Assembly (NCBI GenBank): GCA_024403365.1
Contig: JAKSRX010000009.1
Location: 1-37,658, forward strand
DNA from: Acetatifactor sp.
Lineage (GTDB): Bacteria > Bacillota > Clostridia > Lachnospirales > Lachnospiraceae
Length of the DNA stretch: 37,658 bases
Direction of reading: 5' to 3'
Under the pieces are notes generated by a model that worked only from the letters and a program-made list of their open reading frames with translations, had not been told where the DNA came from and searched no databases. The first letter of the stretch is position 1, and every line of letters begins with the position of its first letter. Shown here in pieces: positions 2,377-36,603 of the stretch. The translations under genes and the position numbers were made by a program.

Positions 2377-3297
2377 CTATTTCCAATATGCTTTGTTGTC
2401 AGAAAGTGCAAGCACCCATTTGCGGGGAAGTTTGCGATAGCTCTTTCCTAACTTATAGCCGGCCAGTTTGAAGGCGCACTGCATACAGAAAGCCGGGAAC
2501 AGATAGATCCTGCCGCTTTCCTTCATCGCCTTCCAGGTAGCTTTCACCAGTTTCATGCCTTCGGATTCGGAGGGAACATCACCGAATACCTCGGGATGGT
2601 CTGCCTGAGAGACACCCAGGTCAAAGTTACGGTGCAGCTGCTGCATACAGCTGTAATTGTGGGAATGTACTACTTTCGCCTCCGCCTCGTAAGCGATGGT
2701 CATGCCGCTTCGCACCACGCCGGAAGCAAAGATCATATCCTCGTTGAAGATAGTATGGCGAATGAATCCGCCCTGCTTCTCATAAATGTCCTTTCGGTAC
2801 GCCGCGCACACATTGGAGCAGAAAAAGGTCTTGATCCCCAGTGTCGGGATATCCTCTGCTCTCTTCAGGCAGGAGGTATCGGGATAGTTGAAGGCTCTGG
2901 AGATCTTCTCCGCCTCACTGCTCTGTGAGGAAGGCAGCTGTCTGGCATAGGCCACTGCCACATCTCCGCCAAGGCGGGCGGTCAGCTTCTCTATCAAATA
3001 TTCATCCGCAGGCATGGCATCCTGGGTCATGCAGACTACCACATCGGCATTTGAAAGCATCATACCCTGATGTCTGGTGGCACCATGGTCGAAGTCTTCC
3101 TTCTTCAGGTGATGTACCTGAGCATTGGGATATGCCTTAGCGAAATCCATGCCTTCCGTCAACTGCAGGAAGTACTTCTCCTCGGTGTTCATCAATATGA
3201 TATTGGAGATCTGCAGGGTCTGAGCATTCAGCTGATCTAACAGGGTGAACAACTCTTTCCCGGGCTTATACAGGGGGATCACTACATCTATTTTCAA
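2377..3297 (-). CDS. Family 2 glycosyltransferase, rhamnosyltransferase-like
   Basis: This cytoplasmic GT-A enzyme probably adds one sugar (rhamnose in the best-known relatives) to the growing lipid-linked chain. The N-terminus IDVVIPLYKPG is the usual first GT2 strand. The metal-site region reads MTQDAMP (about 90-96), and the run VAYARQLP...LGIKTFFCSNVCAAYR is characteristic of the RfbF/rhamnosyltransferase subgroup. About 306 residues, single domain. The TTG at 3297 is chosen because AGGAG lies seven bases upstream and it starts exactly at the family N-terminus. An ATG at 3312 is the alternative, and longer starts fall inside the preceding terminator. It is the last polysaccharide gene, separated from the LCP gene by that terminator, so it may depend on read-through. 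Sugar specificity is inferred only. Confidence 0.85.
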   Translation of the reverse strand: MKIDVVIPLYKPGKELFTLLDQLNAQTLQISNIILMNTEEKYFLQLTEGMDFAKAYPNAQVHHLKKEDFDHGATRHQGMMLSNADVVVCMTQDAMPADEYLIEKLTARLGGDVAVAYARQLPSSQSSEAEKISRAFNYPDTSCLKRAEDIPTLGIKTFFCSNVCAAYRKDIYEKQGGFIRHTIFNEDMIFASGVVRSGMTIAYEAEAKVVHSHNYSCMQQLHRNFDLGVSQADHPEVFGDVPSESEGMKLVKATWKAMKESGRIYLFPAFCMQCAFKLAGYKLGKSYRKLPRKWVLALSDNKAYWK

Positions 3298-3313
3298 AAT
3301 GTTTCTCCTCATT

Positions 3314-3341
3314 GACAAAAGGGGAAGCAATTGCTTCCCCT
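3314..3341 (-). terminator. Palindromic terminator after the LCP gene
   Basis: A perfect 22-base palindrome (3320-3341) with half-site AGGGGAAGCAA is followed by TTTTG on the minus strand. It begins nine bases after the LCP stop codon and ends about 20 bases before the next gene's start codon. It should end most transcripts from the long upstream operon. Confidence 0.75.
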
Positions 3342-3349
3342 AAGTTTTC

Positions 3350-4417
3350 TTATTTGTTGATATAAGGTGATGTCTCAGCCTTGATCTTGTTACCGTATTC
3401 CTTAACCTTATCGGTTACCTGATAATCAGGATCATCGAAGAGGAACTCATGCAGCCATTCAACATTGGACTTCAGATCCAAAGGAACAACGCTGCTTCCC
3501 TTTGCACCGATATTTGCTACGGTTCTCATATCTTCCTGAGGGAAACCGCCCTCATCTACGATACGGTAGTTTGTGATATTGCCAAGCAGGGTCAGGATAT
3601 CTTCGCTGTCGATGCTGGTGTAGATGTCGCCGATGCAGTTATTGAAGACCTTGGTCAGAGTAGCCAGATCCTTCTTCTTAGCCTGCTCCTCGATTGCCTT
3701 GATGACCTCACGCTGTCTTGCAGTTCTCTTGAAGTCGTCACCGGAAGTGTAACGGATACGGCAGTAAGCAGTTGCCTGCAGACCGTCCAGAAGCTGATAA
3801 CCGGTATTCTGTACGGGAGTGTAGGTGGTCTTCAAAACCTTAGCAACGTCGATCTGGTAGTTGTTGATATGCTTTAACTCTGCAGCATCTACATCAATGT
3901 AAATACCGCCCAGTCCATCGATCACTTCGCTCAGTCCCTTGTAACCAACGGTGATGAAGTTCTCGATATCCATATCCAGGTTCATGTTCAGCATCTTGAT
4001 TGCCTGCTCAGCACCACCATAGGAATATGCTGCATTACACTTTCTGTACTCGCTACCGATGTTCAGGAAAGTATCACGGTAAACGCTGCAAAGCTTGATG
4101 TCACCGGTATCCATATTGATACTTGCGATCATGATACTATCGCTTCGGCTGCCCTTCAACAACTGCTTGTCAGTCTGTGCGTCTACACCGAACAGTGCGA
4201 TGTTCATGTAGCCCTTCATGGTACTGGTACCCTCTTCCTTCGCCTGAACGATCTCCTCGGGGATCTCCAGCTTGCCGGGATCCAGGACGGTTACCTTGGG
4301 GCCTTCTTTGGAAGTGTTCATTACCAGGTAAAGAACTCCTACCATTGCAAGAATGATCAGAATCTCAATTGCGAAGATAATGATCTTACGTTTGCTCTTT
4401 GCTTTTTTTGCTGCCAT
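3350..4417 (-). CDS. LytR-CpsA-Psr (LCP) family polysaccharide-peptidoglycan ligase
   Basis: LCP enzymes transfer undecaprenyl-diphosphate-linked polymers to peptidoglycan outside the membrane. The 355-residue protein has a Lys/Arg-rich cytoplasmic start, one membrane helix (about 11-34) and an extracellular LCP domain (about 72-260). Visible motifs are LFGVDA, GSRSDS (89-94), SVYRD (111-115) and the Arg/Asp cluster CRIRYTSGDDFKRTARQ (219-235), which in the family binds pyrophosphate and metal. The extracellular C-terminal tail of about 90 residues is unassigned. AAGGAG lies upstream of the ATG at 4417. It follows the glycosylphosphotransferase gene by 17 bases, so the initiating enzyme and the attaching enzyme are co-transcribed. 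This links the locus to a wall-bound polymer rather than a freely secreted one. Confidence 0.95.
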   Translation of the reverse strand: MAAKKAKSKRKIIIFAIEILIILAMVGVLYLVMNTSKEGPKVTVLDPGKLEIPEEIVQAKEEGTSTMKGYMNIALFGVDAQTDKQLLKGSRSDSIMIASINMDTGDIKLCSVYRDTFLNIGSEYRKCNAAYSYGGAEQAIKMLNMNLDMDIENFITVGYKGLSEVIDGLGGIYIDVDAAELKHINNYQIDVAKVLKTTYTPVQNTGYQLLDGLQATAYCRIRYTSGDDFKRTARQREVIKAIEEQAKKKDLATLTKVFNNCIGDIYTSIDSEDILTLLGNITNYRIVDEGGFPQEDMRTVANIGAKGSSVVPLDLKSNVEWLHEFLFDDPDYQVTDKVKEYGNKIKAETSPYINK

Positions 4418-4434: not shown

Positions 4435-5841
4435 TTAGTACGCGTTTTTATTAATAAAACCTGTAAAGAAAGTCATGATAATGATCTTGATGTCCAGACC
4501 TAAGGTCCAATTTTCAATGTAATACAGGTCGTACTCGATACGCTTGCGGATGGAGGTATCTCCTCTGAGTCCGTTCACCTGCGCCCAACCGGTCAGACCG
4601 GGACGCACCTGGTGTTTTACCATATACCTGGGGATCTCTTCTTTGAATTTCTCAACAAACTGAGGTCTCTCAGGTCTGGGGCCGACTAAACTCATGTCAC
4701 CCTTTAATATATTAAACAACTGCGGCAATTCGTCAAGACTGGTTTTTCTTAAGAATTTACCAACATTTGTTACTCTCGGATCGTTTTTGGTAGTCCAACC
4801 GGACTTTTCTTCCTTCACGGATTGCACGCCCATGCTGCGGAACTTGTACATACAGAAGGGCTTGTTGTGAAGTCCTACTCGCTCCTGCTTGTAGATGATG
4901 GGGCCGGGGCTGGAAAACTTAACAAGGATCGCTGCCACCAGCATCACGGGAGATGCGATGATGATTCCAACCAGGGAACCCACGATATCCATGAGACGCT
5001 TGATGAATTTGTTACCGGTATTGGTCAAAGGCACATATCGGATATTGATCACCGGAAGTCCCATCAGATCTTCGGTGTAAGGTTTGCTGGGTATTAAACT
5101 ATTGTAATCAGGAATGAATTTCGTATGCACGCCGGATTTCTCACAGGTGGCTACGATGCTCTCCAGGTAATCATAATCCTTCAAAGGAAGGGTGATGGCA
5201 ATTTCATCCAGTTCGTTCTGGGGAAGGATGACCTCCAGGTTGCCCAGACTGCCCAACACCTTGACGCCCTTATATAAGGTTCCTGCCGGGATGTTGTTAT
5301 CCAAAATACCCATTGCGGCGTATCCCCACTGAGGATTGTCGCTGATTCGGTCGATATATTCTTCAGCTGCTCTGGAATAACCTACCAGAAGAATGTGCTT
5401 GAGGTTGTAACCCTTGCTGCGGATGGATCGAAGGCTGCCGCGCAGGAACCATCGAAATGCAGAGGTCAAAACAATATTAAAGGCATAGAAGAAAGCCATT
5501 ACCGAACGGGACACGTTAAATTCTCGAATGATTAAGTACAGCAGAATAATCAAAGCGAGAATACCGATGGTATTGGCTTTTACAATGCCGTAGATCTCGA
5601 AACGTCTGCGTATGGTTCTTTTGGGTGCGTACACATCGCAGGCAAAATAGATCACCATATAAATGGGGATGATAATGAAAAGTAAATTCAGATAGGCTGT
5701 GGGAGAAAGGACACCCGGACCCGGTCCCGGATTGAGAATATAGAATTTAAAAAAGTAGGCTCCCATAAAAGACGCCGCTAACAAGCAAGCGTCGATCAGT
5801 ACCAATACTCTGTTGAATACTCTCTGATTGTCCTTTATCAT
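4435..5841 (-). CDS. Undecaprenyl-phosphate sugar phosphotransferase (WbaP/CpsE type), chain initiation
   Basis: This membrane enzyme moves a sugar-1-phosphate from a nucleotide sugar to undecaprenyl phosphate, starting each repeat or chain. The 468-residue product has four or five N-terminal membrane helices (to about 130), a Rossmann-like CoA-binding-type middle domain (LLVGYSRAAEE, about 150-250), then the bacterial sugar transferase domain (about 280-468). That domain has a re-entrant helix, KFRSM (333-337), the Asp-Glu pair in SLDELPQLFN (370-371), LVGPRP (385-390) and RPGLTGWAQVNG. The ATG at 5841 is preceded by GGAG at five bases; an upstream ATG at 5859 lacks a site. It heads the pair with LCP and has a candidate promoter upstream. 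Length and architecture match full-length WbaP-like enzymes. The sugar is probably a hexose such as glucose or galactose, but this is not shown by sequence. Confidence 0.93.
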   Translation of the reverse strand: MIKDNQRVFNRVLVLIDACLLAASFMGAYFFKFYILNPGPGPGVLSPTAYLNLLFIIIPIYMVIYFACDVYAPKRTIRRRFEIYGIVKANTIGILALIILLYLIIREFNVSRSVMAFFYAFNIVLTSAFRWFLRGSLRSIRSKGYNLKHILLVGYSRAAEEYIDRISDNPQWGYAAMGILDNNIPAGTLYKGVKVLGSLGNLEVILPQNELDEIAITLPLKDYDYLESIVATCEKSGVHTKFIPDYNSLIPSKPYTEDLMGLPVINIRYVPLTNTGNKFIKRLMDIVGSLVGIIIASPVMLVAAILVKFSSPGPIIYKQERVGLHNKPFCMYKFRSMGVQSVKEEKSGWTTKNDPRVTNVGKFLRKTSLDELPQLFNILKGDMSLVGPRPERPQFVEKFKEEIPRYMVKHQVRPGLTGWAQVNGLRGDTSIRKRIEYDLYYIENWTLGLDIKIIIMTFFTGFINKNAY

Positions 5842-5882
5842 AAATGCTCCGCAACCCATGAACTATAGGCAACTGCGACCCT

Positions 5883-5979: not shown

Positions 5980-6957
5980 TTAAGATTTCTTAAGAATTTG
6001 GAAGAAATCCGTGTAGAGAGTCAACTGAATGGACAGATAATGGGACAGATTTTGAAAACGGAAGGGCACTTTGGCTTTTCTGCCTTCCGGTGTAAAGCAT
6101 TTTTTCAGGCCCTTGCCCAGTCCCTTCAGATAGAGACTGCCGTAGCCTTTCCTGCAGAAAAACAGGAATTTCACGAAAAATCCCAGCAGTAAAAAAGGCA
6201 GATTCCAGATCCACTGAAGCAGGGGCATATTCTTGCCGATGACATAGACGCTGTTGGCGGAAGCCAAGGTCGTCTTCCACTCGTTGTACCTGGAACCGGA
6301 AGAAGCACTGCCGAAATGGATCACTGCCGCTGTAGGTTCATAATAATTGTGATAACCGTAGATCCTTGCACGATATCCGATGTCCAGATCCTCCAGGTAT
6401 GCAAAATGCTGCTCATCGAAAAGGCCGATCTCATCCAGTACACTCTTACGATAGATGGCTGCGCCGCCGCAGGCTGCAAATACCTGACAGGGCTTGTCAA
6501 AATTAGCTGCAGGCTTTCCTTTTCCTCTGGCAAACGCCCAGCCCAGCATGCAATAACGGTCTCCCGCATCATCCAAAAGCTCCGGCTTATCCCACATCAA
6601 CATCTTGGCGCTGATGGAAAAGGCATCCGGTCTTTGGTCCATCGCCCGGCAAAGGTTTCTCAGATAGTTTTCATCTACTTTGGTATCATTATTCAACAAG
6701 ATAACGAAAGGAGTCTCCGCCAGCTCGATGCCTACGTTGACCGCATGGCAGAAACCGGTATTTTCAGCCAGTTCCACCAGTTTCACGGCAGGGTATTCGT
6801 CTTTTACTATTTCCCTGCTGCCGTCGGCAGAACCGTTATCCACCACAATGGTTTCAAATTCGGGCGCACCTTCCCCCTGGGAATACAGTGCATCCAAGCA
6901 GCCCCGGATAAACTTTATGCCATTGTAGTTGGGGATCACCACCGTTACCTGTTTCAT
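5980..6957 (-). CDS. Family 2 glycosyltransferase, WbbL/rhamnosyltransferase-like
   Basis: This is a 325-residue GT-A enzyme with the first strand VTVVIPNYNG, nucleotide-binding VVDNGSADGS (about 38-47) and the DXD-type site LLNNDT (87-92). The acceptor-side stretch AYLEDLDIGYRARIYGY is typical of dTDP-rhamnose-type transferases. The hydrophobic C-terminal part (about 250-275, LPFLLLGFFVKFLFF) suggests membrane association, where the lipid-linked acceptor sits. GGAG lies a few bases before the ATG at 6957. The gene follows another GT2 by 19 bases and its stop is within an AT-rich CTTAAG pair. Donor and linkage cannot be read from sequence. Confidence 0.88.
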   Translation of the reverse strand: MKQVTVVIPNYNGIKFIRGCLDALYSQGEGAPEFETIVVDNGSADGSREIVKDEYPAVKLVELAENTGFCHAVNVGIELAETPFVILLNNDTKVDENYLRNLCRAMDQRPDAFSISAKMLMWDKPELLDDAGDRYCMLGWAFARGKGKPAANFDKPCQVFAACGGAAIYRKSVLDEIGLFDEQHFAYLEDLDIGYRARIYGYHNYYEPTAAVIHFGSASSGSRYNEWKTTLASANSVYVIGKNMPLLQWIWNLPFLLLGFFVKFLFFCRKGYGSLYLKGLGKGLKKCFTPEGRKAKVPFRFQNLSHYLSIQLTLYTDFFQILKKS

Positions 6958-6976: not shown

Positions 6977-8311
6977 TTACTGTCTGTCGGGAAGATATAA
7001 AAGTCGGAAGCCCTTCTGCCTGATCGCACGTCCCAGGGCGATGGCAAGTTCCTTTGTGTCTGCCCCCTGCGGCAGGATCGATACGTCCAGTCGACCGGTG
7101 CTTTCATCCTTTTTGTAAGGCACACCGACGACCTCCTGAAACAAGGGATACAATGCTTCCTTCAGTTCTATGTTGCGAAGATCTAATGCAAGGGCGTCCT
7201 GCTGAAGACTTGCCCTGTGCAAATAGCCGCTGAAATTCACGGGAAGGTTCTCATAATATACCTTTCCCTCTTCATCCATACGTCCGCCGATGATTCGGTT
7301 TCTATGGATCACCGGACCGCCGATCGCGCCCAGATCTGTGCGCTGGGACAGCGGACTTTCCGCATATTCATACCGGTAAAAGCCCAGATGCTTCGTCTCT
7401 TTAGCTTGTACCTTCCAACCTTTTTTTGCCGCAAAATCCGCGGTAGCTCGCATTCCGGCCTCATAGGCATAACGCTTGCTCTGGGGATTCTCTGCGGTGG
7501 AGGCACTGTGACAGCGCCAGTGATACAACACCTTACCCACGTGGGCGATACACTCTTCCCTGTGGGATAAAGCAAATGCTGCTCGCAGCACCAGATCAAA
7601 ATCCTGGGCACCGTCGTATTCCCCTCGGAATCCCAGGCTCTGCATCAGTTCCCGTTTCATCATCAGGAAATGGCAGATATAGTTATTACTCAACAGAAGA
7701 TCCAGATTGAAATCTTCCTTGAAATTCGGTTCAAAATAAGCAGTTTCTTCGCCGTCGCACTTATCCTCGTCGGAATAGAGCATCTGCAATTCGATTCCCT
7801 GACGACGCTTATTTTCGATCATCGAGACCATCTCGTACAAAGCGTCCGGTGTCAGAATGTCGTCGTGATCCAGAAGACCCACGTAATCTCCGGTCGCAAA
7901 CTTAAGACCTTCGTTGGTATTCTGAGAGATTCCCGCATTTTCCGCCAGTCTGTGATAGACCAGTCTTTCATCGGAGTAGGTCTTCACCACCTGCTCCACG
8001 CTGTCGGTATCACTGGCATCCGCCAGGATCAATTCCAGTTTCGGATAGGTCTGATTCAATACGGAATCGATCATTCTGCGCAGAAACTGTTCCGGTGTGC
8101 GGAAGGCAGGCACCACAATACTGACACGAATGTCAGAAAGCGTCCCGGATGCTGCTCTCTGGTTCTCCAGAACATCCGCCGGGGTCTCCGTGAAGACATA
8201 TGTCTCCCCGCTGCCGCCTAATCTTTCCGCCACTGCATCCCAAGTATTCTTCAGGCCGTTTCGCTTCAGATAATATGCAGTTTTCTTGATATTAGCAATG
8301 ATTGATCCCAT
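6977..8311 (-). CDS. Family 2 glycosyltransferase with N- and C-terminal extensions
   Basis: The 444-residue cytoplasmic GT2 has a helical N-terminus (1-60), then VSIVVPAFRTP (63-73), LADASD (about 96-101), the DXD-type LLDHDD (146-151) and the conserved CHFLMMKR and YDGAQDFDLVLRA segments. The C-terminal 110 residues (about 335-444) form an extra region ending in a Lys/Arg-rich segment without a recognised domain. This resembles the single-GT half of the larger two-domain enzymes encoded upstream, so the set probably arose by duplication. It follows phosphoglucomutase by 12 bases in the same transcript. The acceptor is inferred to be the undecaprenyl-linked chain. Confidence 0.87.
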   Translation of the reverse strand: MGSIIANIKKTAYYLKRNGLKNTWDAVAERLGGSGETYVFTETPADVLENQRAASGTLSDIRVSIVVPAFRTPEQFLRRMIDSVLNQTYPKLELILADASDTDSVEQVVKTYSDERLVYHRLAENAGISQNTNEGLKFATGDYVGLLDHDDILTPDALYEMVSMIENKRRQGIELQMLYSDEDKCDGEETAYFEPNFKEDFNLDLLLSNNYICHFLMMKRELMQSLGFRGEYDGAQDFDLVLRAAFALSHREECIAHVGKVLYHWRCHSASTAENPQSKRYAYEAGMRATADFAAKKGWKVQAKETKHLGFYRYEYAESPLSQRTDLGAIGGPVIHRNRIIGGRMDEEGKVYYENLPVNFSGYLHRASLQQDALALDLRNIELKEALYPLFQEVVGVPYKKDESTGRLDVSILPQGADTKELAIALGRAIRQKGFRLLYLPDRQ

Positions 8312-8323
8312 AAATGGTCCTTT

Positions 8324-10045
8324 TTACAGTTCAGCCTTCAGATCCTCGGTAAGCTGCTCCAGTCTTGCCTTGGCATCCTCCAGGCTCACACCCTTAGCGC
8401 CCATGTAGAACTTGATCTTAGGTTCGGTTCCGGAAGGACGTGCGCAGCACCACTCGTCATCGGGAAGTTCGAAGTAGAGAACGTTGGACTTGGGCAGTCC
8501 GGTCTTTGTCTCTGCGCCGGTCTCCATATCCAGGATCCTGTCAGCCTTGTAGTCTCTGAATTTCAGAACCTTTCTGGATCCGAATGCCTTGGGCGGGTCG
8601 TTACGAAGCTTATCCATCAGAGCAGCGATCTCTCTTGCGCCGTCGATACCCTTCATGGTGATGGTATACTGGCTTTCTTTATAGTAACCGTACTTCTCGT
8701 AGGTCTCCAGCATCATATCCCAGAGGGTCTTGCCCTGCTTCTTGCAGTATGCAGCAACCTCGCAGAGGCACATAACTGCAACGCAGGCATCCTTATCTCT
8801 TGCGTGAGTACCTGCAAGACATCCGTAGGATTCCTCCAGGCCGAATACATAATTGTTGCTTCCGGACTGCTCAAAGAACTTGATCTGCTCACCGATGAAC
8901 TTAAAGCCGGTGAGGACCTCGATCAGTCTTACATTGTAAGCTTCCGTGATAGGTTTTGTCATATTGGTGGTAACGATAGTGGTCACCAGTGCGGGATCTG
9001 CGGGCATGGTTCCGGTAGCGGTCTTCTCTCTCAGAATATACTCTGCGATCAGCATGCCGGACATATTACCGGTGAAGGATACATACTCGCCGGTCTTGGT
9101 ATCCTTTGCATAGACACCGAGACGGTCTGCATCGGGATCGGTTGCCAGAACGATATCTGCATCCTTTTCCTTTGCCAGACGAAGTGCATAGGTAAATGCC
9201 TTGGGATCCTCGGGGTTAGGGTATTCCAATGTGGTAAAGTTGGGGTCGGGATTCTCCTGCTCGGGAACCACATACACGTGCTTGAAGCCAAGCTCTGCAA
9301 GAACGCGTCTAACAGGCAGGTTGCCGGTACCGCAGAGAGGGGTGTAAACGATCTTGATATCCTCTGCCATCTCCTTGATCACATCGGGATGGATGATCTG
9401 CTTCTTCAGTTCTTCCATGTATTTGTCATCGATCTCCTTGCCGATGACTTCATAGAGGCCCGCTGCAATGGCGTCAGCCTTATCCATGGTCTTGCAATCA
9501 TGGAAATCCTTGATGGCCTTTACTTCACCGATGATCTCGGCATCTCTGGGTGCGGTGATCTGTGCGCCGTCTTCCCAGTATACCTTGTAACCGTTGTACT
9601 CGGGAGGGTTGTGGCTTGCGGTCACAACGATACCTGCGGTACAGCCCAGAGTACGCAGTGCAAAGGAAAGTTCGGGAGTGGGTCTCAGTGTCTCGAACAC
9701 ATAAGCCTTGATGCCGTTAGCTGCCAGACAAAGACCTGCAACATCAGCGAACTCAGGAGACATTTTTCTGGAGTCGTAAGCAATTGCTACGCCCTTCGCC
9801 TGAGTACCCTGCTTCAAAATATAGTTTGCAAGGCCCTGTGTAGCCTTACGTACGGTATAAATATTCATGCGATTCATACCTGCACCGATCACGCCGCGGA
9901 GACCGCCGGTACCGAATTCCAGCTCCTTGTAGAAACGGTCCTCGATCTCACCCTGATCGTTGCGGATCGCCAACAGTTCATTCTTAGTGTCCTGGTCGAA
10001 ATAATCATCCTCTAACCAGAAACGAAACTCATCCATAAAACTCAT
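8324..10045 (-). CDS. Phosphoglucomutase / phosphomannomutase (alpha-D-phosphohexomutase)
   Basis: This enzyme interconverts hexose-6-phosphate and hexose-1-phosphate, supplying glucose-1-phosphate (or mannose-1-phosphate) for nucleotide sugars. All four family signatures are present: the phosphoserine loop TASHNPPEYNGYKVY (Ser144), the metal loop DPDADR (303-308), the sugar-binding GLEESYG (402-408) and the phosphate-binding RPSGTEP (536-542). At 573 residues it matches the long PgcA-type class common in Firmicutes. AGAGG precedes the ATG at 10045. Its place between glycosyltransferase genes suggests a dedicated precursor supply, although a general metabolic role is equally possible. Confidence 0.95.
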   Translation of the reverse strand: MSFMDEFRFWLEDDYFDQDTKNELLAIRNDQGEIEDRFYKELEFGTGGLRGVIGAGMNRMNIYTVRKATQGLANYILKQGTQAKGVAIAYDSRKMSPEFADVAGLCLAANGIKAYVFETLRPTPELSFALRTLGCTAGIVVTASHNPPEYNGYKVYWEDGAQITAPRDAEIIGEVKAIKDFHDCKTMDKADAIAAGLYEVIGKEIDDKYMEELKKQIIHPDVIKEMAEDIKIVYTPLCGTGNLPVRRVLAELGFKHVYVVPEQENPDPNFTTLEYPNPEDPKAFTYALRLAKEKDADIVLATDPDADRLGVYAKDTKTGEYVSFTGNMSGMLIAEYILREKTATGTMPADPALVTTIVTTNMTKPITEAYNVRLIEVLTGFKFIGEQIKFFEQSGSNNYVFGLEESYGCLAGTHARDKDACVAVMCLCEVAAYCKKQGKTLWDMMLETYEKYGYYKESQYTITMKGIDGAREIAALMDKLRNDPPKAFGSRKVLKFRDYKADRILDMETGAETKTGLPKSNVLYFELPDDEWCCARPSGTEPKIKFYMGAKGVSLEDAKARLEQLTEDLKAEL

Positions 10046-10118: not shown

Positions 10119-12182
10119 TTACTTCTGTACCTTCAGGGAGAAATCACTTCTGTCCAGGGATAAGTTTACATTGTAGTAAGGATCTCCTGCTTCCAGTTCC
10201 TTCGCCCACTTCTCGCGGAATCTTGCGGATTCATCGTCGTAGCGCTTCGCCTTCTCACCGTTGTCATCCAGTCCTCTGGATACGGACTCATGATGGAACA
10301 GTTCACAGAAGGGAGTAAACACATTCAGAAGTCCCTTTCCGCGAAGTTTCAGGCACAGATCCACGTCGTTCAGAGAGATCTCGAAGCTTTCATCCAATCC
10401 GCCTACCGCAAGGTAAAGAGCTTTCTTTACCAAGAGACATGCTCCGGTCACAGCGGTAACATTCTGCGCATAGCAAAGTCTGCCCATATAACCAAGGTTC
10501 TGTCTGTGCTGCTTGTAGTGGGTATGTCCTGCGGTCCTGTGTGCGCCGAGACCGATGACCACGCCCGCATGCTGAATGGTCTTGTCTGCGTAGTAGAGCT
10601 TTGCGCCTACCGCGCCGACATCCTCACGCTGGGCATACATCAGAAGTTCCTCCATCCAGTTCACGGTGATAACTTCCGTATCGTTGTTCAGAAGGAGCAC
10701 ATATTCGCCCTCTGTATAATCCACGCCCAGGTTATTCACTGCGGAATAATTGAACTTGCCCTCGTAGAGCACGATCTTTACCTTCTCCCCGCATACACCA
10801 TCGGCATTGGCACGAAGGATACCCATATCGCAGAGTTTGCCGCGGCGTAAGATCACACGGCTGTCCTCCACTGCTTTGTCATAATCGTATCCCAACAACT
10901 CGCTGTAGTACTTTTTGATCTCAGCGGTAGTGCTGTTGTTCTCTACGATGATAATCTCATAGTTGTCGTAGGTGCTCTTCTCCAAAATAGAAGTCACGCA
11001 GCGACGCAGATCCTCCGCATGGTCCTTATTGGGGATCACGATAGAGATCTTGGGAGTGCCGAGGATCTCATAACGAATACGGAAGATGGTCTCGAAAGCA
11101 CGGGTGCTCTCGATCTTGAAATGATCGTATCCGTGGTTGCGAAGATGCTCTGCAACCGCTCCCTTTGCCGCATCGATAGCGTAGGGCTTTGCGGAGATAC
11201 CGGAAGCAACGCTGCCGGAGTGAGATCTCCAGTAATACATCAGTCTGGGGATATGCACGATCTTCTCTGCATTGTCTGTCAGACGCAGGATCATATCATG
11301 GTCCTGGCTTCCGTCAAACTTGGGGCGGAACAATTCCTTACCATCCAGGAGGGTCCTCTTGAACACGCTGAAATGGCAAATATAGTTGTTGGCACGAAGG
11401 TTATCGGGTGCATAATCGGGTTTGAAATGCATGGTCAGCATGTGATCGATATTACCGCTCTTAAAGGTGGTCTCATCACAGTACAGATAGTCCGCGCCCT
11501 GCTCATTGATAGCCTTCACATACTCGAAAAGCACGCTGGGATGCAGGATGTCATCCTGATCCAGAAGACCGATATATTCACCGGTAGCAAGTTCCAGGCA
11601 GGCATTGGTGTTGCCTGCGATACCGCCGTTTTTCTCCAGATGCTTATAAACGATACGACCGCCGGATCTCTCTGCGTACTCCTTGCAGATGTCGCCGATG
11701 TAGCTGTGGGCCTCGTCGGAACCGTCTGCCAGGCAGAGTTCCCAGTTCTGATAAGTCTGATTCATTACGGAATCCAGCATCTCGATCTGGAATTCCTTCT
11801 GATTGTTCCACAGGGGCACCAGAATACTGATCTTCGCCATGTAAGGGAAGACCGTCTCTCTCTCCTTGGCTGCCTGCTCCACGGAAGGGAAACTAGCGCT
11901 GCCGAACTGCTTCATGGCTTCCTTCTCACGCTTCTTGTAGCCGATCTTGGCTACCACGCCGCGAGGTCCGCCGCAGTTTTTCAGTCTGTCCTTCTGACGG
12001 ATGGCCCAGTGAACACAATCTCTGGCAGGTTTGCTTGCCTTCCAGAGGGGATTGTTCTTGATACGGCCCAGTTTCCACTCCAGTTCTTCGTTCTTTGCTT
12101 CCAGGTCTGCAATGCGTCCCGCCAGATCGGCGTTTTTCAAATGCTCCTGTTCATATGCTTCTCTGTAATCTATTTCACTCAT
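10119..12182 (-). CDS. Two-domain family 2 glycosyltransferase
   Basis: The 687-residue cytoplasmic protein has a short N-terminal coiled coil (about 10-45) and a basic linker. A first GT-A domain follows (about 117-370; ISILVPLWNN, DXD-type LLDQDD at 206-211), then a second (about 378-640; ISIVIPNKDH, LLNNDT at 497-502, LNDVDLCLKLR). Two complete donor sites in one chain suggest that it adds two sugars or alternates linkages, as bifunctional polysaccharide polymerases do. The second domain has an extra segment of about 30 residues (about 435-470) before the usual NYSAVNNLG motif. GGAG lies seven bases before the ATG, and the gene starts 10 bases after the previous stop, so translation is probably coupled. 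Confidence 0.9.
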   Translation of the reverse strand: MSEIDYREAYEQEHLKNADLAGRIADLEAKNEELEWKLGRIKNNPLWKASKPARDCVHWAIRQKDRLKNCGGPRGVVAKIGYKKREKEAMKQFGSASFPSVEQAAKERETVFPYMAKISILVPLWNNQKEFQIEMLDSVMNQTYQNWELCLADGSDEAHSYIGDICKEYAERSGGRIVYKHLEKNGGIAGNTNACLELATGEYIGLLDQDDILHPSVLFEYVKAINEQGADYLYCDETTFKSGNIDHMLTMHFKPDYAPDNLRANNYICHFSVFKRTLLDGKELFRPKFDGSQDHDMILRLTDNAEKIVHIPRLMYYWRSHSGSVASGISAKPYAIDAAKGAVAEHLRNHGYDHFKIESTRAFETIFRIRYEILGTPKISIVIPNKDHAEDLRRCVTSILEKSTYDNYEIIIVENNSTTAEIKKYYSELLGYDYDKAVEDSRVILRRGKLCDMGILRANADGVCGEKVKIVLYEGKFNYSAVNNLGVDYTEGEYVLLLNNDTEVITVNWMEELLMYAQREDVGAVGAKLYYADKTIQHAGVVIGLGAHRTAGHTHYKQHRQNLGYMGRLCYAQNVTAVTGACLLVKKALYLAVGGLDESFEISLNDVDLCLKLRGKGLLNVFTPFCELFHHESVSRGLDDNGEKAKRYDDESARFREKWAKELEAGDPYYNVNLSLDRSDFSLKVQK

Positions 12183-14188: not shown

Positions 14189-16321
14189 TTAGAATATCCT
14201 CTTCACCGACTTAGCCATGGCTTCCGTCATAGCCAAAGGAACACGGGCAACCTCCATGCATACATGAACGGTATTCTCTGCCTTGCGATCCAGCTCTGTC
14301 AGATTGATATGGATATTGGGGTCAATGGTGGGAAAGATCAGGGTCGCGGGCTTTGCGATGCGACCGTTGATCAGGAAGATCTTCTTATTGTCGGTAGGGA
14401 TGGGCACCCCATTCAAGGTCAGTTCCTTCACCTGCACCACGCAGCTGTCGAAGGCGGGGTCGATGCGCAAGGTACGCACATTGCCATCCACATGCAGATC
14501 CATTTCGATCAGGTTATCGCCCTGATAAGCATCCTTCACGAAATAGGAAGCCTCCTCGGAAAAGCCTTTTCCGGTATCCTCATATACCTGCACACGATTC
14601 ACATTATCGGAATCGCGGTACTTATCGATCCACTTCTGCGGCTCCATCACGCGGTAACCGATCAGATCTCTCATCTGAGACATCGCCAGATGCTTACCGG
14701 TGACGAAACTCTGGAATTCTCTCTCCTGCTCACGGAAGTTCTCCGCCTCTGCCTCAGAGATGTTCAGTTCCTCCAGAATACTATCCAGATCGATCCTGTT
14801 GCGCTTCTCGCTCTCCAGCAGATAGCAGTAGATCGCGCGGAAAGCCAGTTCTCTGGTCTCGATGGATTTGCCGAAGGTCCACTCGTAGTCGATCATGGTC
14901 CAGGTATCTCCATCCACTAAGAGGTTCGCGAAGATCAGATCAAAATCCGACACGGGATATTCGCTGTTATAACCAATGCGCTCCATATACTCATGGAACA
15001 GTTTCTTGAAGCCGATGAGATCGTTCTTCTCCACGCAGGCATCCATCAGCTGAGAAAGGGGAATGCCGGGAACGAAATCGAACTCCGCAAATACCTTGCC
15101 ATCCTCTTCTCCCAGGCGGCAGTAATTGATCTCCAGCTTACTGTCCTTGTAACGGTCGCTCAACTGCTCATAGGCCACCGCCATAGCTTTGACGTGGTTC
15201 TCTGCTTCCTTGGTCTGCGGATATTTGCGCACGGTGATGAGCTGGCGCATTTCCTTTCTGGGATCGGTGACCTCGTCACCGTTTTCGGGAGGCAGGGCAA
15301 CCTCGATCTCTGAAACGCGGATCTCTGTGCGAATCGCATACTCGGGAGCTCTGTCATTGGAATATTTTGCATATTTTACTTCCGGTGATGCGCCTAACAC
15401 CACCAGATAAGAATTGGAGAAAACAGGGAACAGGCCTTCCTCAACGATACCGTCGAAGGCATTTTTCTCATCAAAGAGAAGCATTCTATCTCTGTCGAAA
15501 TTTCTAAGATTGTTGGATAAGTCACCCTTACCGGGCAAGTATTCATCACTGTAAAGAGCGGTCATGAATTTATAGTCGGGGTAAGGATAATAGAAGTGGT
15601 AATCCTCCACGCCGCACTTGCGGAAGATGTTCTCCAGTCCCTGTCTGCCGAAGGTACGAACTCCGCCGCCATCTGCATAATTCTCGATGCCGGAGAACCA
15701 GGTGCCCAGATGGTCTTCCTTGCAGCCTGCGAAATACTTCAGGCCGTATTTGTTCTCAATCGCGATCACCAGCTTGCCGTTCTCAGCAAGATGGGGCAGC
15801 AATGTCTTCAGGAAATCTTCGAAAGGCGTATCTCCGCCGATGTAACTGATACCGTACTCAAACACACCGATGAGGCAGATATAGTCATAATCACAGGGCA
15901 GATCAGGCTCGATATCCTTGAAATTGCCCACATGGATGGTGATATTGTCATTCTCTGCATGACGGTAGGCATTGATCAGGCTGCGCTTCTTGGAAAGGTC
16001 CACACAGGTCACACTGCCTGCCTTGGCAGACAAAGCACCGGTGATGGCACCACAGCCGCTGCCTACTTCCAGAACCTTCATGTCCTTGTTCATGGGAAGC
16101 CAGTCCACGATATTCTCACGTAACGGAGAAAGGTGATAAAGCACCGGCCAATTCTTATGTTCTTCGATGGCACCGGCATACTCGATGGGCGCAAGATCTT
16201 TGACGATGGTAAGGATCTCATCCTCCACCGCTCCGTCGCAATAAAGATCCTCTCCCGGATATTTACTGTAATCCAGTGTCACCAGTCCGATCTTCTCTGT
16301 TGTCTGGTTTGAATCTGCCAT
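14189..16321 (-). CDS. Methyltransferase-kinase fusion, WbdD-like chain-terminator candidate
   Basis: The 710-residue protein joins three regions. First is a class I SAM methyltransferase (about 60-240; SAM loop VLEVGSGCGAITG at 83-95, then CVDLS). Second is a kinase-like region (about 355-540) with Lys366 in ITVRKY, acidic Glu372/Glu374, Asp461 and Asn466 in DFDLIFANLLV, and Asp478 in MIDYEW. The spacing matches the HRDLKxxN and DFG elements of protein and aminoglycoside kinases. Third is a beta-rich tail (about 600-700). In E. coli O9a, WbdD joins the same two activities and caps the O-chain, setting its length. GGGGGAAG precedes the ATG at 16321. It follows wzt, whose extra domain could read the cap. 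The activities are seen as motifs; the role is inferred from architecture and context. Confidence 0.8.
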   Translation of the reverse strand: MADSNQTTEKIGLVTLDYSKYPGEDLYCDGAVEDEILTIVKDLAPIEYAGAIEEHKNWPVLYHLSPLRENIVDWLPMNKDMKVLEVGSGCGAITGALSAKAGSVTCVDLSKKRSLINAYRHAENDNITIHVGNFKDIEPDLPCDYDYICLIGVFEYGISYIGGDTPFEDFLKTLLPHLAENGKLVIAIENKYGLKYFAGCKEDHLGTWFSGIENYADGGGVRTFGRQGLENIFRKCGVEDYHFYYPYPDYKFMTALYSDEYLPGKGDLSNNLRNFDRDRMLLFDEKNAFDGIVEEGLFPVFSNSYLVVLGASPEVKYAKYSNDRAPEYAIRTEIRVSEIEVALPPENGDEVTDPRKEMRQLITVRKYPQTKEAENHVKAMAVAYEQLSDRYKDSKLEINYCRLGEEDGKVFAEFDFVPGIPLSQLMDACVEKNDLIGFKKLFHEYMERIGYNSEYPVSDFDLIFANLLVDGDTWTMIDYEWTFGKSIETRELAFRAIYCYLLESEKRNRIDLDSILEELNISEAEAENFREQEREFQSFVTGKHLAMSQMRDLIGYRVMEPQKWIDKYRDSDNVNRVQVYEDTGKGFSEEASYFVKDAYQGDNLIEMDLHVDGNVRTLRIDPAFDSCVVQVKELTLNGVPIPTDNKKIFLINGRIAKPATLIFPTIDPNIHINLTELDRKAENTVHVCMEVARVPLAMTEAMAKSVKRIF

Positions 16322-16350
16322 ACGCTTCCCCCAATTAAGCCTATTTGTGT

Positions 16351-16370
16351 ACTCGCTTTAGCGAGTATGC
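16351..16370 (-). repeat. Short hairpin repeat, copy 2 (between wzt and the methyltransferase-kinase gene)
   Basis: ACTCGC (16351-16356) pairs with GCGAGT (16361-16366) around a TTTA loop, followed by ATGC. With wobble pairs the stem can extend to about 10 bp (16347-16370). It matches the copy at 2277-2296 except for a compensating pair change and one loop base. Like copy 1 it sits in the leader just upstream of a start codon. There is no T-tract, so it is not a terminator. Confidence 0.6.
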
Positions 16371-16374
16371 TTTC

Positions 16375-17667
16375 TTAGATATCCTTCACATGCACCTCAG
16401 AGTCCATGTCATAATATCCCACGGTATTTTTATCCGACACCACTGTGATATTCAAGGTGTCATAAAGTCTGTGATAGACCTCGAATTTATCTTTTTCATA
16501 GCCTGTTACTCCCAAAGATAACAGGTACTCACCACCCTGAAGGCTCATCTTCTGGGTAAAGGTGATCTCTTTCACCATGCCTGCCTTGGCACTGTCTAAG
16601 AACGCCTTTTCAAACATGGTATTGGTTCCGGTGATCTCCGTACCGATGGGATTCTTGAAAGAAAATGCAAAGATCGGTGCCGGAATATCTTCCAGGAACC
16701 GCACCTTCATATGAAGGGTAAATGTGCTTCCCTTGATCACTGCGGTGGTACGCACACCGGAATCATCGGTGACATAATACTCTTCGATCACAGCCTGCTT
16801 GGTGCCGTACTCCAGCTTATCGGGATTGATTCCCGCTGCCTGGCTCGCCGCATTCTGAATATCGGGATCTTCCAGCAGATTATTTTCATCACCCTTGACA
16901 GGGACTTCATACTGTCCCACCAGGATCCTCTTATAGGCATCGATCATAGCCTTGGGAGTACCTTCTCCCAGGAGATTACCCTGATTCAGCAGGAATACTC
17001 TGTCGCAGTATTTGCTGATACTGCTTAAGTCATGGCTGACGAAGACGATGGTCTTACCCATCTTCTTGAATTCTTCGAATTTGTGATAACACTTCGCCTG
17101 GAAGAATACATCTCCTACGGAAAGTGCTTCATCTACGATCAATATCTCAGGCTCGATGTTGATGGCAACCGCAAAAGCCAGTCGCACAAACATACCGCTG
17201 GAGTAAGTCTTTACCGGCTGATATACATAATCACCGATGTCCGCAAACTCCAGGATCTCCGGCAGTTTCTCATCGATCTCCTTCTCGGAAAAGCCCATCA
17301 TGGTACCATTCAGATACACGTTCTCAATACCGTTGTATTCCTGGTTGAAGCCTGCGCCCAGTTCCAGCAGCGCACTGATTCGTCCGTCCACTTTCACCTC
17401 ACCGGAGGTAGGATTGAGTACGCCGGTGATGATCTTTAAGATGGTGGATTTACCGGAACCGTTGGTACCGATGATACCTACCGTCTCACCCTTGTTGATC
17501 TTCAGGCTGACGCCGTTCAAGGCATAATGGGTCTTGTGATTAACTTTTTTGCCGAAGCCCAGGGCCTCTTTCACGCGGTCTCTGGGTTTCTCATATAATT
17601 TATAGACTTTTACGACATCCTTCACCTCAATGGCGGGAGTGTCTGCTTGTATCTTTTTTTCTTCCAT
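16375..17667 (-). CDS. wzt: Polysaccharide ABC exporter ATPase (Wzt type) with C-terminal carbohydrate-recognition domain
   Basis: This is the ATPase of an ABC exporter that moves lipid-linked polysaccharide across the membrane. The nucleotide-binding domain (about 12-250) has Walker A GTNGSGKST (67-75), the signature YSSGMFVRLAFAV (155-167), Walker B ILIVDEA (175-181) and the switch His in VSHDLS. The remaining 180 residues include a beta-rich domain (about 290-430) like the extra domain of Wzt proteins that bind modified chain ends. A plain TagH- or RfbE-type ATPase would lack it. GGAG lies five bases before the ATG. It is 24 bases downstream of the permease gene and upstream of the methyltransferase-kinase gene. 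Confidence 0.93.
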   Translation of the reverse strand: MEEKKIQADTPAIEVKDVVKVYKLYEKPRDRVKEALGFGKKVNHKTHYALNGVSLKINKGETVGIIGTNGSGKSTILKIITGVLNPTSGEVKVDGRISALLELGAGFNQEYNGIENVYLNGTMMGFSEKEIDEKLPEILEFADIGDYVYQPVKTYSSGMFVRLAFAVAINIEPEILIVDEALSVGDVFFQAKCYHKFEEFKKMGKTIVFVSHDLSSISKYCDRVFLLNQGNLLGEGTPKAMIDAYKRILVGQYEVPVKGDENNLLEDPDIQNAASQAAGINPDKLEYGTKQAVIEEYYVTDDSGVRTTAVIKGSTFTLHMKVRFLEDIPAPIFAFSFKNPIGTEITGTNTMFEKAFLDSAKAGMVKEITFTQKMSLQGGEYLLSLGVTGYEKDKFEVYHRLYDTLNITVVSDKNTVGYYDMDSEVHVKDI

Positions 17668-17691: not shown

Positions 17692-18678
17692 CTACAGTAC
17701 ATCTGCAAAATGAACCTTCAGACGCTTGAAGATCAGGGCGCCTACACCAAACAATACCACGGTCACGATCCAGAAATACATAGTGGAGAAGAAGTCCTGG
17801 AAGAACCATTCTCTCTCATAGATCGCACTTCTGTAACCGTTCACGATGTACACTAAGGGATTGAGTTTCAGAATCACCACCCACTTGGCATCGATGGTAT
17901 TGATATTCCAAAGGATAGGGGTCGCCCACATACCGATCTGCAGCGCAATGTTGATGATCTGCCCCAGATCGCGGAAGAATACCACGATGGAGCAGGTGGT
18001 ATAACACAGCGCCAGCACAAAGATAAACAGGCAGAAACTGTAATAAAAGATCTGTATGGTATAGACCGTAGGGAAATATCCGTACAGAGCTGCCACGATC
18101 AGAAGCACACATACGAAAAATGCGTGGATGAAGGTGGCTGCGATGATCTTAATGATCGGCAGAATACTGATCTTGAATACCACCTTTTTGACCAGATAAT
18201 TGTATTCCAGCATGGCATTGGTTCCGTTGTTCAAGGCTTCATTAAAGAAAAACCAGGGAACCAGACCTGCGGTCAAAAACAGTACAAAGGGGACATCGCC
18301 GCTGCCGCGGTTCAATCCGTTGCCCATCAGTTTGTCAAACACGATATAGTACATTGCCACGGTGACTACCGGCTGGACCATAGCCCAGACAGCACCCATG
18401 TAGGAGCCGGCATAGCGCTTTTTGAAGTCGTTCTTAGCCAGTTTCCAGATCAGAAATCTGCTCTGATACAGTTCCTGAGGCAATGTCATGATTTTGTCAT
18501 ATCCGATTGCGAAAGCAATGACAGCTATCAGAATGATCGTGCAGGAAATGATCTTCTTCACCAGCTCCGCCTGCAAGTCAGGGGCAGGACCCGGGTTTTT
18601 ATAGAAGATGATCACTGCTGCAAGAAGCAATCCGAGAAGCGAAAAAATCGAGATTCCGCACTTTTTGCTAATCTTCAT
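17692..18678 (-). CDS. wzm: Polysaccharide ABC exporter permease (Wzm type, ABC-2 family)
   Basis: The 328-residue integral membrane partner of Wzt carries the polymer channel. The ABC-2 core (from about 85) starts with the amphipathic interface helix LIWKLAKNDFKKRYAGSYMG and has six hydrophobic spans. WFFFNEALNNGTNAM and the late NPLVYIVNGYRSAIYER are typical of the polysaccharide and teichoic-acid exporter permeases. Two extra hydrophobic spans precede the core (about 8-25 and 34-53), making it longer than the usual 260-280 residues. The ATG at 18678 is chosen because AAAGGA lies upstream. Earlier in-frame ATGs lack ribosome sites and would add a hydrophilic leader. It follows the lysozyme gene by about 100 bases without a clear terminator. 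Confidence 0.93.
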   Translation of the reverse strand: MKISKKCGISIFSLLGLLLAAVIIFYKNPGPAPDLQAELVKKIISCTIILIAVIAFAIGYDKIMTLPQELYQSRFLIWKLAKNDFKKRYAGSYMGAVWAMVQPVVTVAMYYIVFDKLMGNGLNRGSGDVPFVLFLTAGLVPWFFFNEALNNGTNAMLEYNYLVKKVVFKISILPIIKIIAATFIHAFFVCVLLIVAALYGYFPTVYTIQIFYYSFCLFIFVLALCYTTCSIVVFFRDLGQIINIALQIGMWATPILWNINTIDAKWVVILKLNPLVYIVNGYRSAIYEREWFFQDFFSTMYFWIVTVVLFGVGALIFKRLKVHFADVL

Positions 18679-18742
18679 GTTACTTTTTCCTTTACAAACC
18701 ATTTGTGGGCCGCTCATCCGGCCTCCAAATATGGTTATACGA

Positions 18743-18770
18743 AATGGGAACGATACAAATCGTCCCCATT
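18743..18770 (-). other. Intergenic hairpin between lysozyme and wzm genes
   Basis: AATGGGAACGAT (18743-18754) pairs with ATCGTCCCCATT (18759-18770), a 12-bp stem with one G-U pair and a four-base loop. On the minus strand no T-tract follows, so a complete terminator is unlikely. It may stabilise or partially attenuate the transcript between the two genes. Confidence 0.55.
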
Positions 18771-18780
18771 CCAATGATAT

Positions 18781-34299: not shown

Positions 34300-34311
34300 A
34301 ACGTACCTCTG

Positions 34312-35505: not shown

Positions 35506-35528
35506 AACCAATGCCTCTCTTCAAATTA

Positions 35529-35554
35529 AGGCACCGTGTAGGTACACAGTGCCT
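35529..35554 (-). other. Stable hairpin between pseB and pseC
   Basis: AGGCACCGTGTA (35529-35540) pairs with TACACAGTGCCT (35543-35554), 12 bp with one G-U pair and a two-base loop. On the minus strand only TAATTTG follows, so termination would be partial at most. It could lower downstream expression relative to pseB or protect the upstream message. Confidence 0.55.
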
Positions 35555-35566
35555 CAAATGTTTTCC

Positions 35567-36562: not shown

Positions 36563-36603
36563 AAGTAACTCCTTTTTCACAGAAACTGGTCAAAACCTTA
36601 GTT

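What the first reader, a model, noticed from the sequence alone, without database searches (positions are those of the whole stretch)
14189..16321. Methyltransferase-kinase fusion resembling the E. coli O-antigen chain terminator WbdD, in a Gram-positive-type locus
A SAM loop (residues 83-95) is followed by a region with all key kinase landmarks in order: Lys366, Glu372/374, Asp461, Asn466, Asp478. The Asp-Asn spacing (5) and Asn-Asp spacing (12) fit the HRDLKxxN and DFG elements. WbdD combines the same two activities to cap a polymer and set its length. An automatic annotation would probably show only 'methyltransferase', hiding the kinase half.
Basis: partly seen in the sequence, partly recalled or inferred. 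Interest (0 to 1): 0.8.

Follow-up and report, generated by a model that had tools for sequence, protein, structure and literature searches.

The report
Methyltransferase-kinase cap for gut-bacterial wall sugars
A gut bacterium of the Lachnospiraceae carries a two-part enzyme that probably puts a phosphate and then a methyl group on the end of a surface sugar chain, which would stop the chain growing and mark it for export; relatives of this system are known from Gram-negative bacteria, and it turns out to be common in this Gram-positive gut family.

Summary
The observation largely holds, on the minus strand: 14189-16321 is one intact 710-aa gene, a SAM methyltransferase (about 1-310), a kinase-like domain (about 314-545) and a C-terminal domain. 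K366, D461, N466 and D478 are invariant in two alignments (19 and 77 sequences); E372/E374 are not conserved. In 9 of 30 relatives the halves are separate adjacent genes, split at the predicted boundary.

It works like WbdD but shows no specific sequence kinship to it. Its kin is the Klebsiella O7 terminator (ORF6-O7, shown in print to add methylphosphate), through a Pseudomonas orthologue with all six published SAM-site residues; unlike that type it shows no coiled coil of its own. In 150 family genomes 78 have a homologue, including all 76 with a strong Wzt_C (cap-reader) domain. Most likely it is a phospho-methyl chain terminator of a wall glycan: a Gram-positive, unfused variant of a known kind. 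Activity, cap and polymer are untested.

The parts
14189..16321 (-). MTK: 710-aa methyltransferase-kinase protein with a C-terminal CBM-like domain (putative chain terminator)
   Evidence: single open frame from ATG; homologues
15392..16243 (-). methyltransferase domain, residues 27-310, including conserved ENxxGLKYxAG..EDH and YPYPDYK motifs
   Evidence: Pfam/NCBIfam; invariants; PDB profile hits for this half are methyltransferases
16037..16075 (-). SAM-binding loop VLEVGSGCGAITG, residues 83-95
   Evidence: invariant E85 G87 G89 G91
14687..15382 (-). kinase-like domain, residues 314-545
   Evidence: profile vs PDB sequences, hhalign vs APH and protein kinases with controls, natural gene splits at the boundary
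15224..15226 (-). K366, aligned to the ATP-binding lysine of kinases
   Evidence: 39/40 diverse domains; aligned with the VAVK lysine of JAK1
14939..14941 (-). D461, catalytic Asp
   Evidence: 39/40; aligned to the HRD Asp and to D443 of the Pseudomonas orthologue
14924..14926 (-). N466, Mg-binding Asn
   Evidence: 40/40
14888..14890 (-). D478 of IDYEW, equivalent of the DFG Asp
   Evidence: 38/40
14222..14614 (-). C-terminal domain, residues 570-700, partly aligned to the Pseudomonas orthologue; at the place of the Ig-like CBM reported for ORF6-O7
   Evidence: no convincing Pfam or PDB match
16375..17667 (-). Wzt: ABC ATPase with C-terminal Wzt_C domain
   Evidence: PF14524 E 6.7e-40; 38% identical to E. 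coli O9-type Wzt, C-terminal domain included
17692..18774 (-). Wzm: ABC-2 permease
   Evidence: PF01061
12193..14169 (-). GT2 glycosyltransferase, 658 aa, variable between loci
10119..12182 (-). dual-GT2 putative polymerase, 687 aa
   Evidence: 35% over 574 aa to the C-terminal part of the Pseudomonas fusion
12060..12125 (-). possible short coiled coil, residues 20-41 of the dual-GT2 protein
   Evidence: core positions hydrophobic 429/444 vs 274/1110 at other positions in 74 homologues; a crude scan of 28-residue windows did not single it out
8324..10045 (-). phosphoglucomutase/phosphomannomutase-type protein
6977..8311 (-). GT2 glycosyltransferase
5980..6957 (-). GT2 glycosyltransferase
4435..5859 (-). 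undecaprenyl-phosphate glucose phosphotransferase (initiation)
   Evidence: TIGR03023 above cut-off
3350..4417 (-). LCP-family wall glycopolymer transferase (anchoring)
   Evidence: PF03816 E 5e-31
2377..3330 (-). GT2 glycosyltransferase

Best explanation
The protein is a bifunctional chain terminator. Undecaprenyl-linked glycan is built in the cytoplasm (initiation by the 4435-5859 transferase; polymerisation by GT2 enzymes, chiefly the dual-GT2 protein). The kinase domain phosphorylates the non-reducing-end sugar with ATP and the methyltransferase domain methylates that phosphate from SAM; the cap blocks elongation. The Wzt C-terminal domain recognises the cap and licenses export through Wzm/Wzt; an LCP enzyme then anchors the chain to peptidoglycan. 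Shown here: gene, domains by profile, conserved residues, neighbourhood, co-occurrence with a Wzt_C class, homology to a protein of the Klebsiella O7 type. Inferred: both reactions, their order, the cap as terminator, recognition by Wzt, the wall anchoring; the sugar is unknown.
For: Catalytic residues invariant in close relatives and nearly so in 40 diverse domains. Kinase profile finds mainly kinases among PDB sequences, in register; the whole-protein profile matched 196 chains, and the 60 shown are methyltransferase-type for one half and kinases for the other. hhalign vs APH 94.1%, vs protein kinases 61.5%; reversed, RmlD, methyltransferase and C-terminal-domain controls at most 1.5%. Split genes at the predicted boundary; fusions to GT2 in other family members. 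Pseudomonas asturiensis protein directly after permease and ATPase genes: 27% over 665 aa, kinase halves related on their own (hhalign 95.8%), six of six published ORF6-O7 SAM residues at identical numbers; ORF6-O7 was shown to add methylphosphate and to terminate (PMC11231755). Wzt_C at 130 bits or more in 76 of 150 genomes, all 76 with a homologue. Order wzm, wzt, terminator as in E. coli HS.
Against: No fold could be predicted. No activity data; the polymer is unknown. The terminator shows no coiled coil, which is called a characteristic marker of this strategy (PMC11231755), so a length ruler would have to lie in a partner. No conserved helix-C Glu. Single members match APH in Pfam only once in 40, and the APH profile alone scores the Pseudomonas kinase half at only 7.5% although it scores WbdD at 95%. 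Pseudomonas lacks the Lys (His) and Citrobacter has Glu for D478. L124 has a degenerate kinase and L123 lacks the motif. Two or three genomes have a homologue without a strong Wzt_C (G090 is a weak match). Kinship to ORF6-O7 goes through an orthologue; the Klebsiella sequence was not at hand.
Confidence: 0.75

Rival explanations
1. Methyl-only terminator: the kinase half is structural or inactive and the cap is a plain O-methyl, as for E. coli O8 WbdD or Geobacillus WsaE.
For: Methyl-only caps are known, also in a Gram-positive (WsaE, PMC2943079 passages); one distant relative (L124) has lost the kinase residues and L123 lacks the motif.
Against: K366, D461, N466 and D478 are invariant in 77 of 77 rows and nearly so in 40 diverse ones, which is unexpected for a dead domain; the O7 enzyme needs its kinase Asp (PMC11231755).
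Confidence: 0.09
2. Internal decoration: the enzyme adds methylphosphate to residues along the chain and does not terminate it.
For: Nothing in the sequence says which residue is modified; the protein shows no coiled-coil ruler of its own.
Against: Tight link with a strong Wzt_C class (76 of 76), fusions with glycosyltransferase modules, and a relative that terminates.
Confidence: 0.1
3. Two separate jobs: the kinase acts on something else (a lipid carrier, a sugar or a protein) and the methyltransferase on the glycan.
For: APH-like kinases act on many small molecules (recalled); the halves are separate genes in 9 of 30 loci.
Against: In the split cases examined the halves stay adjacent; the O7 relative uses both on one glycan end.
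Confidence: 0.05

Closest known systems
ORF6-O7 N-terminal methyltransferase-kinase of Klebsiella pneumoniae O7 (PMC11231755; sections 11 and 13, first parts, and passages seen)
   Same: Methyltransferase, then an unannotated kinase of about 220 aa, then a further domain; ABC-exporter pathway; same SAM-site residues (one E to D) through the Pseudomonas orthologue; dual GT2 part of that orthologue homologous to the dual GT2 protein in the window.
   Different: Here terminator and dual-GT2 protein are separate genes with a further GT2 gene between them, the terminator shows no coiled coil, and the host is Gram-positive with an LCP enzyme. The paper names orthologues in alpha- and gammaproteobacteria and cyanobacteria, and homologues in an archaeon.
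WbdD of E. coli O9/O9a (PMC3482155, abstract and passages; HS sequence)
   Same: Order methyltransferase then kinase, D-x4-N catalytic loop, place directly after wzm-wzt; Wzt partner 38% identical.
   Different: No detectable specific sequence similarity; His132-His133 replaced by Glu-Tyr; no coiled coil found in this protein.
WsaE of Geobacillus stearothermophilus (PMC2943079, passages)
   Same: Gram-positive, ABC-exported glycan, methyltransferase-based end cap, gene next to wzm-wzt.
   Different: No kinase is described there; 2-O-methyl rhamnose cap; S-layer glycan; sequence not compared here.
Lcin_0519 kinase-methyltransferase family (PMC9758233, section 9 and passages)
   Same: Predicted kinase plus methyltransferase, Wzt/Wzm/GT neighbours, no helix-C Glu found.
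   Different: The groups named in that section are Gram-negative; prediction only; sequence not compared here.

Membership tests
ORF6-O7-type methyltransferase-kinase terminators | SAM-site residues Y28, Y66, G91, G93, E112, Y158 | tested here: met
   Pseudomonas orthologue has all six at the same numbers; the window protein aligns Y27, Y62, G87, G89, D108 (conservative change), Y156
ORF6-O7-type methyltransferase-kinase terminators | kinase catalytic Asp (D441) | tested here: met
   D461 aligns with D443 of the Pseudomonas orthologue; the Klebsiella sequence itself was not compared
ORF6-O7-type methyltransferase-kinase terminators | sequence homology of the kinase domain | tested here: met
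   profile of 38 rows without the two Gram-negative ones vs Pseudomonas kinase: hhalign 95.8%, E 8e-9; hmmsearch 25 bits, best of 150 shuffles 1.7 bits
ORF6-O7-type methyltransferase-kinase terminators | Ig-like CBM-like domain after the kinase | tested here: inconclusive
   C-terminal domain partly aligned to the orthologue; no convincing Pfam or PDB match; fold not predicted
ORF6-O7-type methyltransferase-kinase terminators | coiled coil on the terminator | tested here: not met
   crude heptad scan: window protein 18 of 40 shuffles reach its best score, against 0 of 40 for WbdD and for the Citrobacter protein; Pseudomonas 10 of 40, so the scan also misses it there. Hence filed as a homologous variant, not as a full member
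ORF6-O7-type methyltransferase-kinase terminators | ATP- and SAM-dependent modification of the chain end | not testable with these tools
   needs assay
WbdD family | sequence homology | tested here: not met
   BLASTP best E 0.68 over 18 aa; kinase hhalign 2.4%, hmmsearch within shuffles; only the generic methyltransferase core aligns, 44%
WbdD family | kinase residues equivalent to D351, N356, D369 | tested here: met
   residues present in the HS protein; D461, N466, D478 in register with them in the weak hhalign alignment
WbdD family | His132-His133 of the phosphate methyltransferase site | tested here: not met
   they align with Glu155-Tyr156; Arg203 lies outside the alignment and was not tested
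WbdD family | extended C-terminal coiled coil | tested here: not met
   the membrane-binding region was not tested
ABC-exporter-coupled end capping | Wzt with C-terminal CBM beside the terminator | tested here: met
   stated as typical of such systems in PMC11127046 (passages)
APH/protein kinase superfamily | conserved helix-C Glu | tested here: not met
   E372, E374 and E385 not conserved
APH/protein kinase superfamily | fold | not testable with these tools
   structure prediction switched off; profile evidence

The most novel reading that the evidence does not exclude
About half of Lachnospiraceae genera build a peptidoglycan-anchored wall glycan whose length and export are policed by a methylphosphate end cap and a matching Wzt cap reader: the first phospho-methyl-capped glycan system of Gram-positive bacteria, with its parts (methyltransferase, kinase, glycosyltransferases) freely fused or split between lineages.
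Probability: 0.58. Interest if true: 0.68.

Novelty: new variant of a known kind. Interest (0 to 1): 0.55.

Why it matters
If right, a length-and-quality control known from LPS O antigens also governs a surface glycan of common gut Gram-positives. It would predict a methylphosphate end on that glycan, give a handle (one gene) on its length, and explain a kinase domain that Pfam and NCBIfam do not name. The natural splits and fusions make the coupling of terminator and polymerase testable by comparison.

Tried and rejected
Structure prediction: sent once (told to wait twenty calls), again after more than twenty (switched off); fold search therefore not possible. Replaced by profile comparisons.

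Membership in the WbdD family: rejected on direct comparison with the WbdD-position protein of E. coli HS. E372/E374 as helix-C Glu: rejected. A coiled coil on the window protein: not found by a crude heptad scan; the same scan did not single out residues 20-41 of the dual-GT2 protein, so that stretch rests on its conserved pattern alone.

Klebsiella O7 ORF6 itself: not at hand; the Citrobacter gene has no match in the E. coli genomes. Kinship is inferred through the Pseudomonas protein.

Identity of the C-terminal domain: at E up to 1 no Pfam family in more than one of 34 members, and one PDB match at E 0.72; called CBM-like by position only.

Sugar: the genome has an RmlD match and, beside it, a second weaker match to the same model, so dTDP-rhamnose is plausible; this does not fix the substrate.

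Phage records with homologues carry no annotation; taken as probably bacterial contigs, not followed.

Literature: searches listed no paper on such a terminator in Lachnospiraceae or other Firmicutes; listings and passages were seen, and the library holds open-licence papers only.

Full report
What is there. The finding's coordinates hold one intact gene on the minus strand, ATG at 16321, 710 aa. Pfam and NCBIfam recognise only its methyltransferase part (a sub-threshold HisKA_2 match lies in the second half). It sits in a closely packed gene row on the same strand: wzm (17692-18774), wzt with a C-terminal Wzt_C domain (16375-17667), this gene, a GT2 gene, a dual-GT2 gene, a phosphohexomutase, two GT2 genes, an undecaprenyl-phosphate glucose phosphotransferase, an LCP-family wall-polymer transferase and another GT2 gene.

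Observation. All four are invariant in 19 rows down to 36% identity (18 of the 30 loci plus the window) and in 77 rows (76 of the 80 loci plus the window, four that looked redundant left out). In 40 diverse kinase domains (chosen from 117 hits at under 50% identity, one short row dropped and the Citrobacter row added) they are 39, 39, 40 and 38 of 40. Exceptions: His for K366 in Pseudomonas, Glu for D478 in Citrobacter, and L124, which has lost D461, D478, E480 and W481. The Glu at 372/374 is not conserved.

Is it a kinase? With the 40-row profile, 33 distinct PDB sequences came up at E up to 10; by my reading of the names 29 are kinase or phosphotransferase chains (best E 6e-4; two lanthionine-synthetase-type entries, SalKC and 8w7l, counted in), three are phosphodiesterase chains and one is a 'putative kinase' of unclear type. 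The five printed alignments put D461/N466 on the HRD-N loop; the three JAK1 ones put K366 on the VAVK lysine and the two Ser/Thr-kinase ones put D478 on the DFG Asp. The profile of the whole protein (A1) matched 196 distinct chains; the 60 shown are methyltransferase-type for positions 73-191 (one named only 'ToxA protein') and kinases for 341-485. hhalign gave 94.1% (E 1e-7) against 29 APH-family sequences and 61.5% against 29 protein kinases, while the reversed profile, RmlD, methyltransferase and C-terminal-domain controls stayed at or below 1.5%. The C-terminal-domain profile finds no kinases in the PDB (one match, E 0.72). Against this, on single sequences Pfam finds APH in only 1 of 40.

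Natural dissection. In the first 30 related loci the two halves are one frame in 21 (one of them cut by a contig end) and two adjacent frames in 9. At the 12 junctions that I looked at (those nine and L133-L135) I read the methyltransferase stop as overlapped by, or followed within about 20 nt by, a start codon of the kinase, which begins near the conserved K-Y/F...R motif. In 16 loci picked for long frames or distance, one frame carries methyltransferase, kinase and GT2 in seven (L125-L129, L131, L132) and, with a weak kinase match, in an eighth (L140, another family); kinase-GT2 with a separate methyltransferase in three (L133-L135); methyltransferase and kinase without a detected GT2 in three (L130, L136, L137) and with a weak kinase match in L139; in L138 the profile finds only the methyltransferase, though the motif is there. 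The parts behave as modules of one machine.

Kinship. A tblastn of the plasmid collection found two records: Pseudomonas asturiensis (1457 aa, 27% over 665 aa in BLASTP) and Citrobacter braakii (649 aa), both directly after an ABC permease and ATPase gene. The Pseudomonas protein has Y28, Y66, G91, G93, E112 and Y158, the six SAM-site residues printed for Klebsiella O7 ORF6, at the same numbers, and its C-terminal GT2 pair is 35% identical over 574 aa to the window's dual-GT2 protein. It thus links two separate genes of the window in one protein. Kinase halves alone are related (hhalign 95.8% Pseudomonas, 86.6% Citrobacter; hmmsearch 25 and 16 bits, best of 150 shuffles 1.7). A result that cuts the other way: the APH profile by itself gives the Pseudomonas kinase half only 7.5%, but WbdD 95.1%. 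In PMC11231755 (first parts of sections 11 and 13, and passages) O7 ORF6 gave phosphorylated and methyl-phosphorylated products on O-3 of the terminal rhamnose, D441A abolished the reaction, the cell phenotype shown is described as that expected when O polysaccharide cannot be exported, and the orthologues named are in proteobacteria and cyanobacteria, with homologues in an archaeon.

WbdD. From E. coli HS (O9 by its wzt/wzm annotation) I took the gene between wzt and wbdA, annotated only as a methyltransferase; it carries the residues published for WbdD that I checked (R36, H132, H133, R203, Y230, E274, D351, N356, D369; passages of PMC3482155). It has no BLASTP similarity to the window protein, only the generic methyltransferase core aligns by profile (44%), and against our kinase profile it scores within the range of shuffled sequences, with a 2.4% hhalign match that is nevertheless in register at the catalytic loop. 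Yet wzm, wzt and terminator stand in the same order and the Wzt proteins are 38% identical through the C-terminal domain. So: works like WbdD, not of the WbdD family.

Linkage to export. In 150 genomes of the bacterial family, 81 have a match at E up to 1e-3. I dropped three weak ones (G085, G090, G124; G090 may be a true distant member), leaving 78 at E up to 1e-7, whole or in parts. Wzt_C occurs in 94, in 92 over its cut-off. All 76 genomes with a Wzt_C of 130 bits or more are among the 78; the two others are G023 (121 bits) and G076 (none found). Of 16 genomes with only a weaker Wzt_C above the cut-off, one (G023) has the homologue. In 73 of the 76 both lie on one contig and in 66 the Wzt_C is within 1.5 kb upstream on the same strand. 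Fisher p is 3e-41, but genomes are related and the bit limit was set after looking, so it is descriptive. In the 80 loci, a wzt match is found in 79, wzm in 77, dual-GT2 in 78 and the GH25 protein in 74 (tallies, whose per-locus list was cut in print; GT2 counts include cross-matches between GT2 genes, and downstream genes are limited by the 10-kb flank: LCP 8, initiating transferase 47).

Against. The terminator shows no coiled coil in a crude heptad scan (18 of 40 shuffles reach its best score; WbdD and Citrobacter 0 of 40; Pseudomonas 10 of 40). A possible short one sits at residues 20-41 of the dual-GT2 protein, where core positions are hydrophobic in 429 of 444 cells against 274 of 1110 others in 74 homologues, but the scan did not pick it as that protein's best window. 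L124 has a degenerate kinase and L123 lacks the motif, while four other distant genomes keep it (G199, G298, G359, G532). The polymer and cap have not been seen.

Verdict. Most likely a phospho-methyl chain terminator homologous to the Klebsiella O7 type, in unfused form, in a Gram-positive wall-glycan locus; filed as a variant, not as a full member, because the coiled coil is missing. The mechanism is inferred; the parts list, homology and linkage are shown. In print I found a Gram-positive methyl cap (WsaE, PMC2943079, passages) but no Gram-positive methyltransferase-kinase terminator.

Noticed in passing
16350-16367, minus strand: Perfect 7-bp inverted repeat (TACTCGC-TAAA-GCGAGTA) in the gap between wzt and the methyltransferase-kinase start; no T-run follows.
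   Followed up: no
18781-21969: 1062-aa protein with GH25 muramidase, choline-binding-like repeats and a Big_2 domain directly upstream of wzm; a match is present in 74 of 80 related loci, so it may belong to this glycan system.
   Followed up: partly
L124 (whole-genome locus of G467): A relative from another family of the phylum with an apparently dead kinase half (D461N, D478N, E480Q, W481G), perhaps a methyl-only terminator like E. coli O8 WbdD.
   Followed up: partly
L017, L021, L022, L024, L026-L030, L133-L135: Methyltransferase and kinase as separate adjacent genes with the junction at the same domain boundary, in some with overlapping stop and start.
   Followed up: yes
33772-36580: Sugar nucleotide dehydratase, DegT aminotransferase and GNAT acetyltransferase genes, resembling the start of a pseudaminic-acid-type pathway (naming recalled), with a second ABC exporter at 30863-32608 and a GtrII-like gene at 28443-29993.
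   Followed up: no
phage records MT839147, MT836085, MT836982: Unannotated faecal 'Bacteriophage sp.' records hold homologues at 61%, 38% and 40% identity; possibly bacterial contigs with a phage label.
   Followed up: no
12193-14169: The GT2 gene between terminator and dual-GT2 protein is less conserved (about 30-45% in the rows seen) than its neighbours and seems absent in some loci (for example L036, L061, L062, L110), as a strain-specific gene would be.
   Followed up: no
JAMPHU010000021.1 (L034): A contig labelled Candidatus Gastranaerophilales carries a 65% identical homologue with the same gene order; likely a binning error.
   Followed up: no
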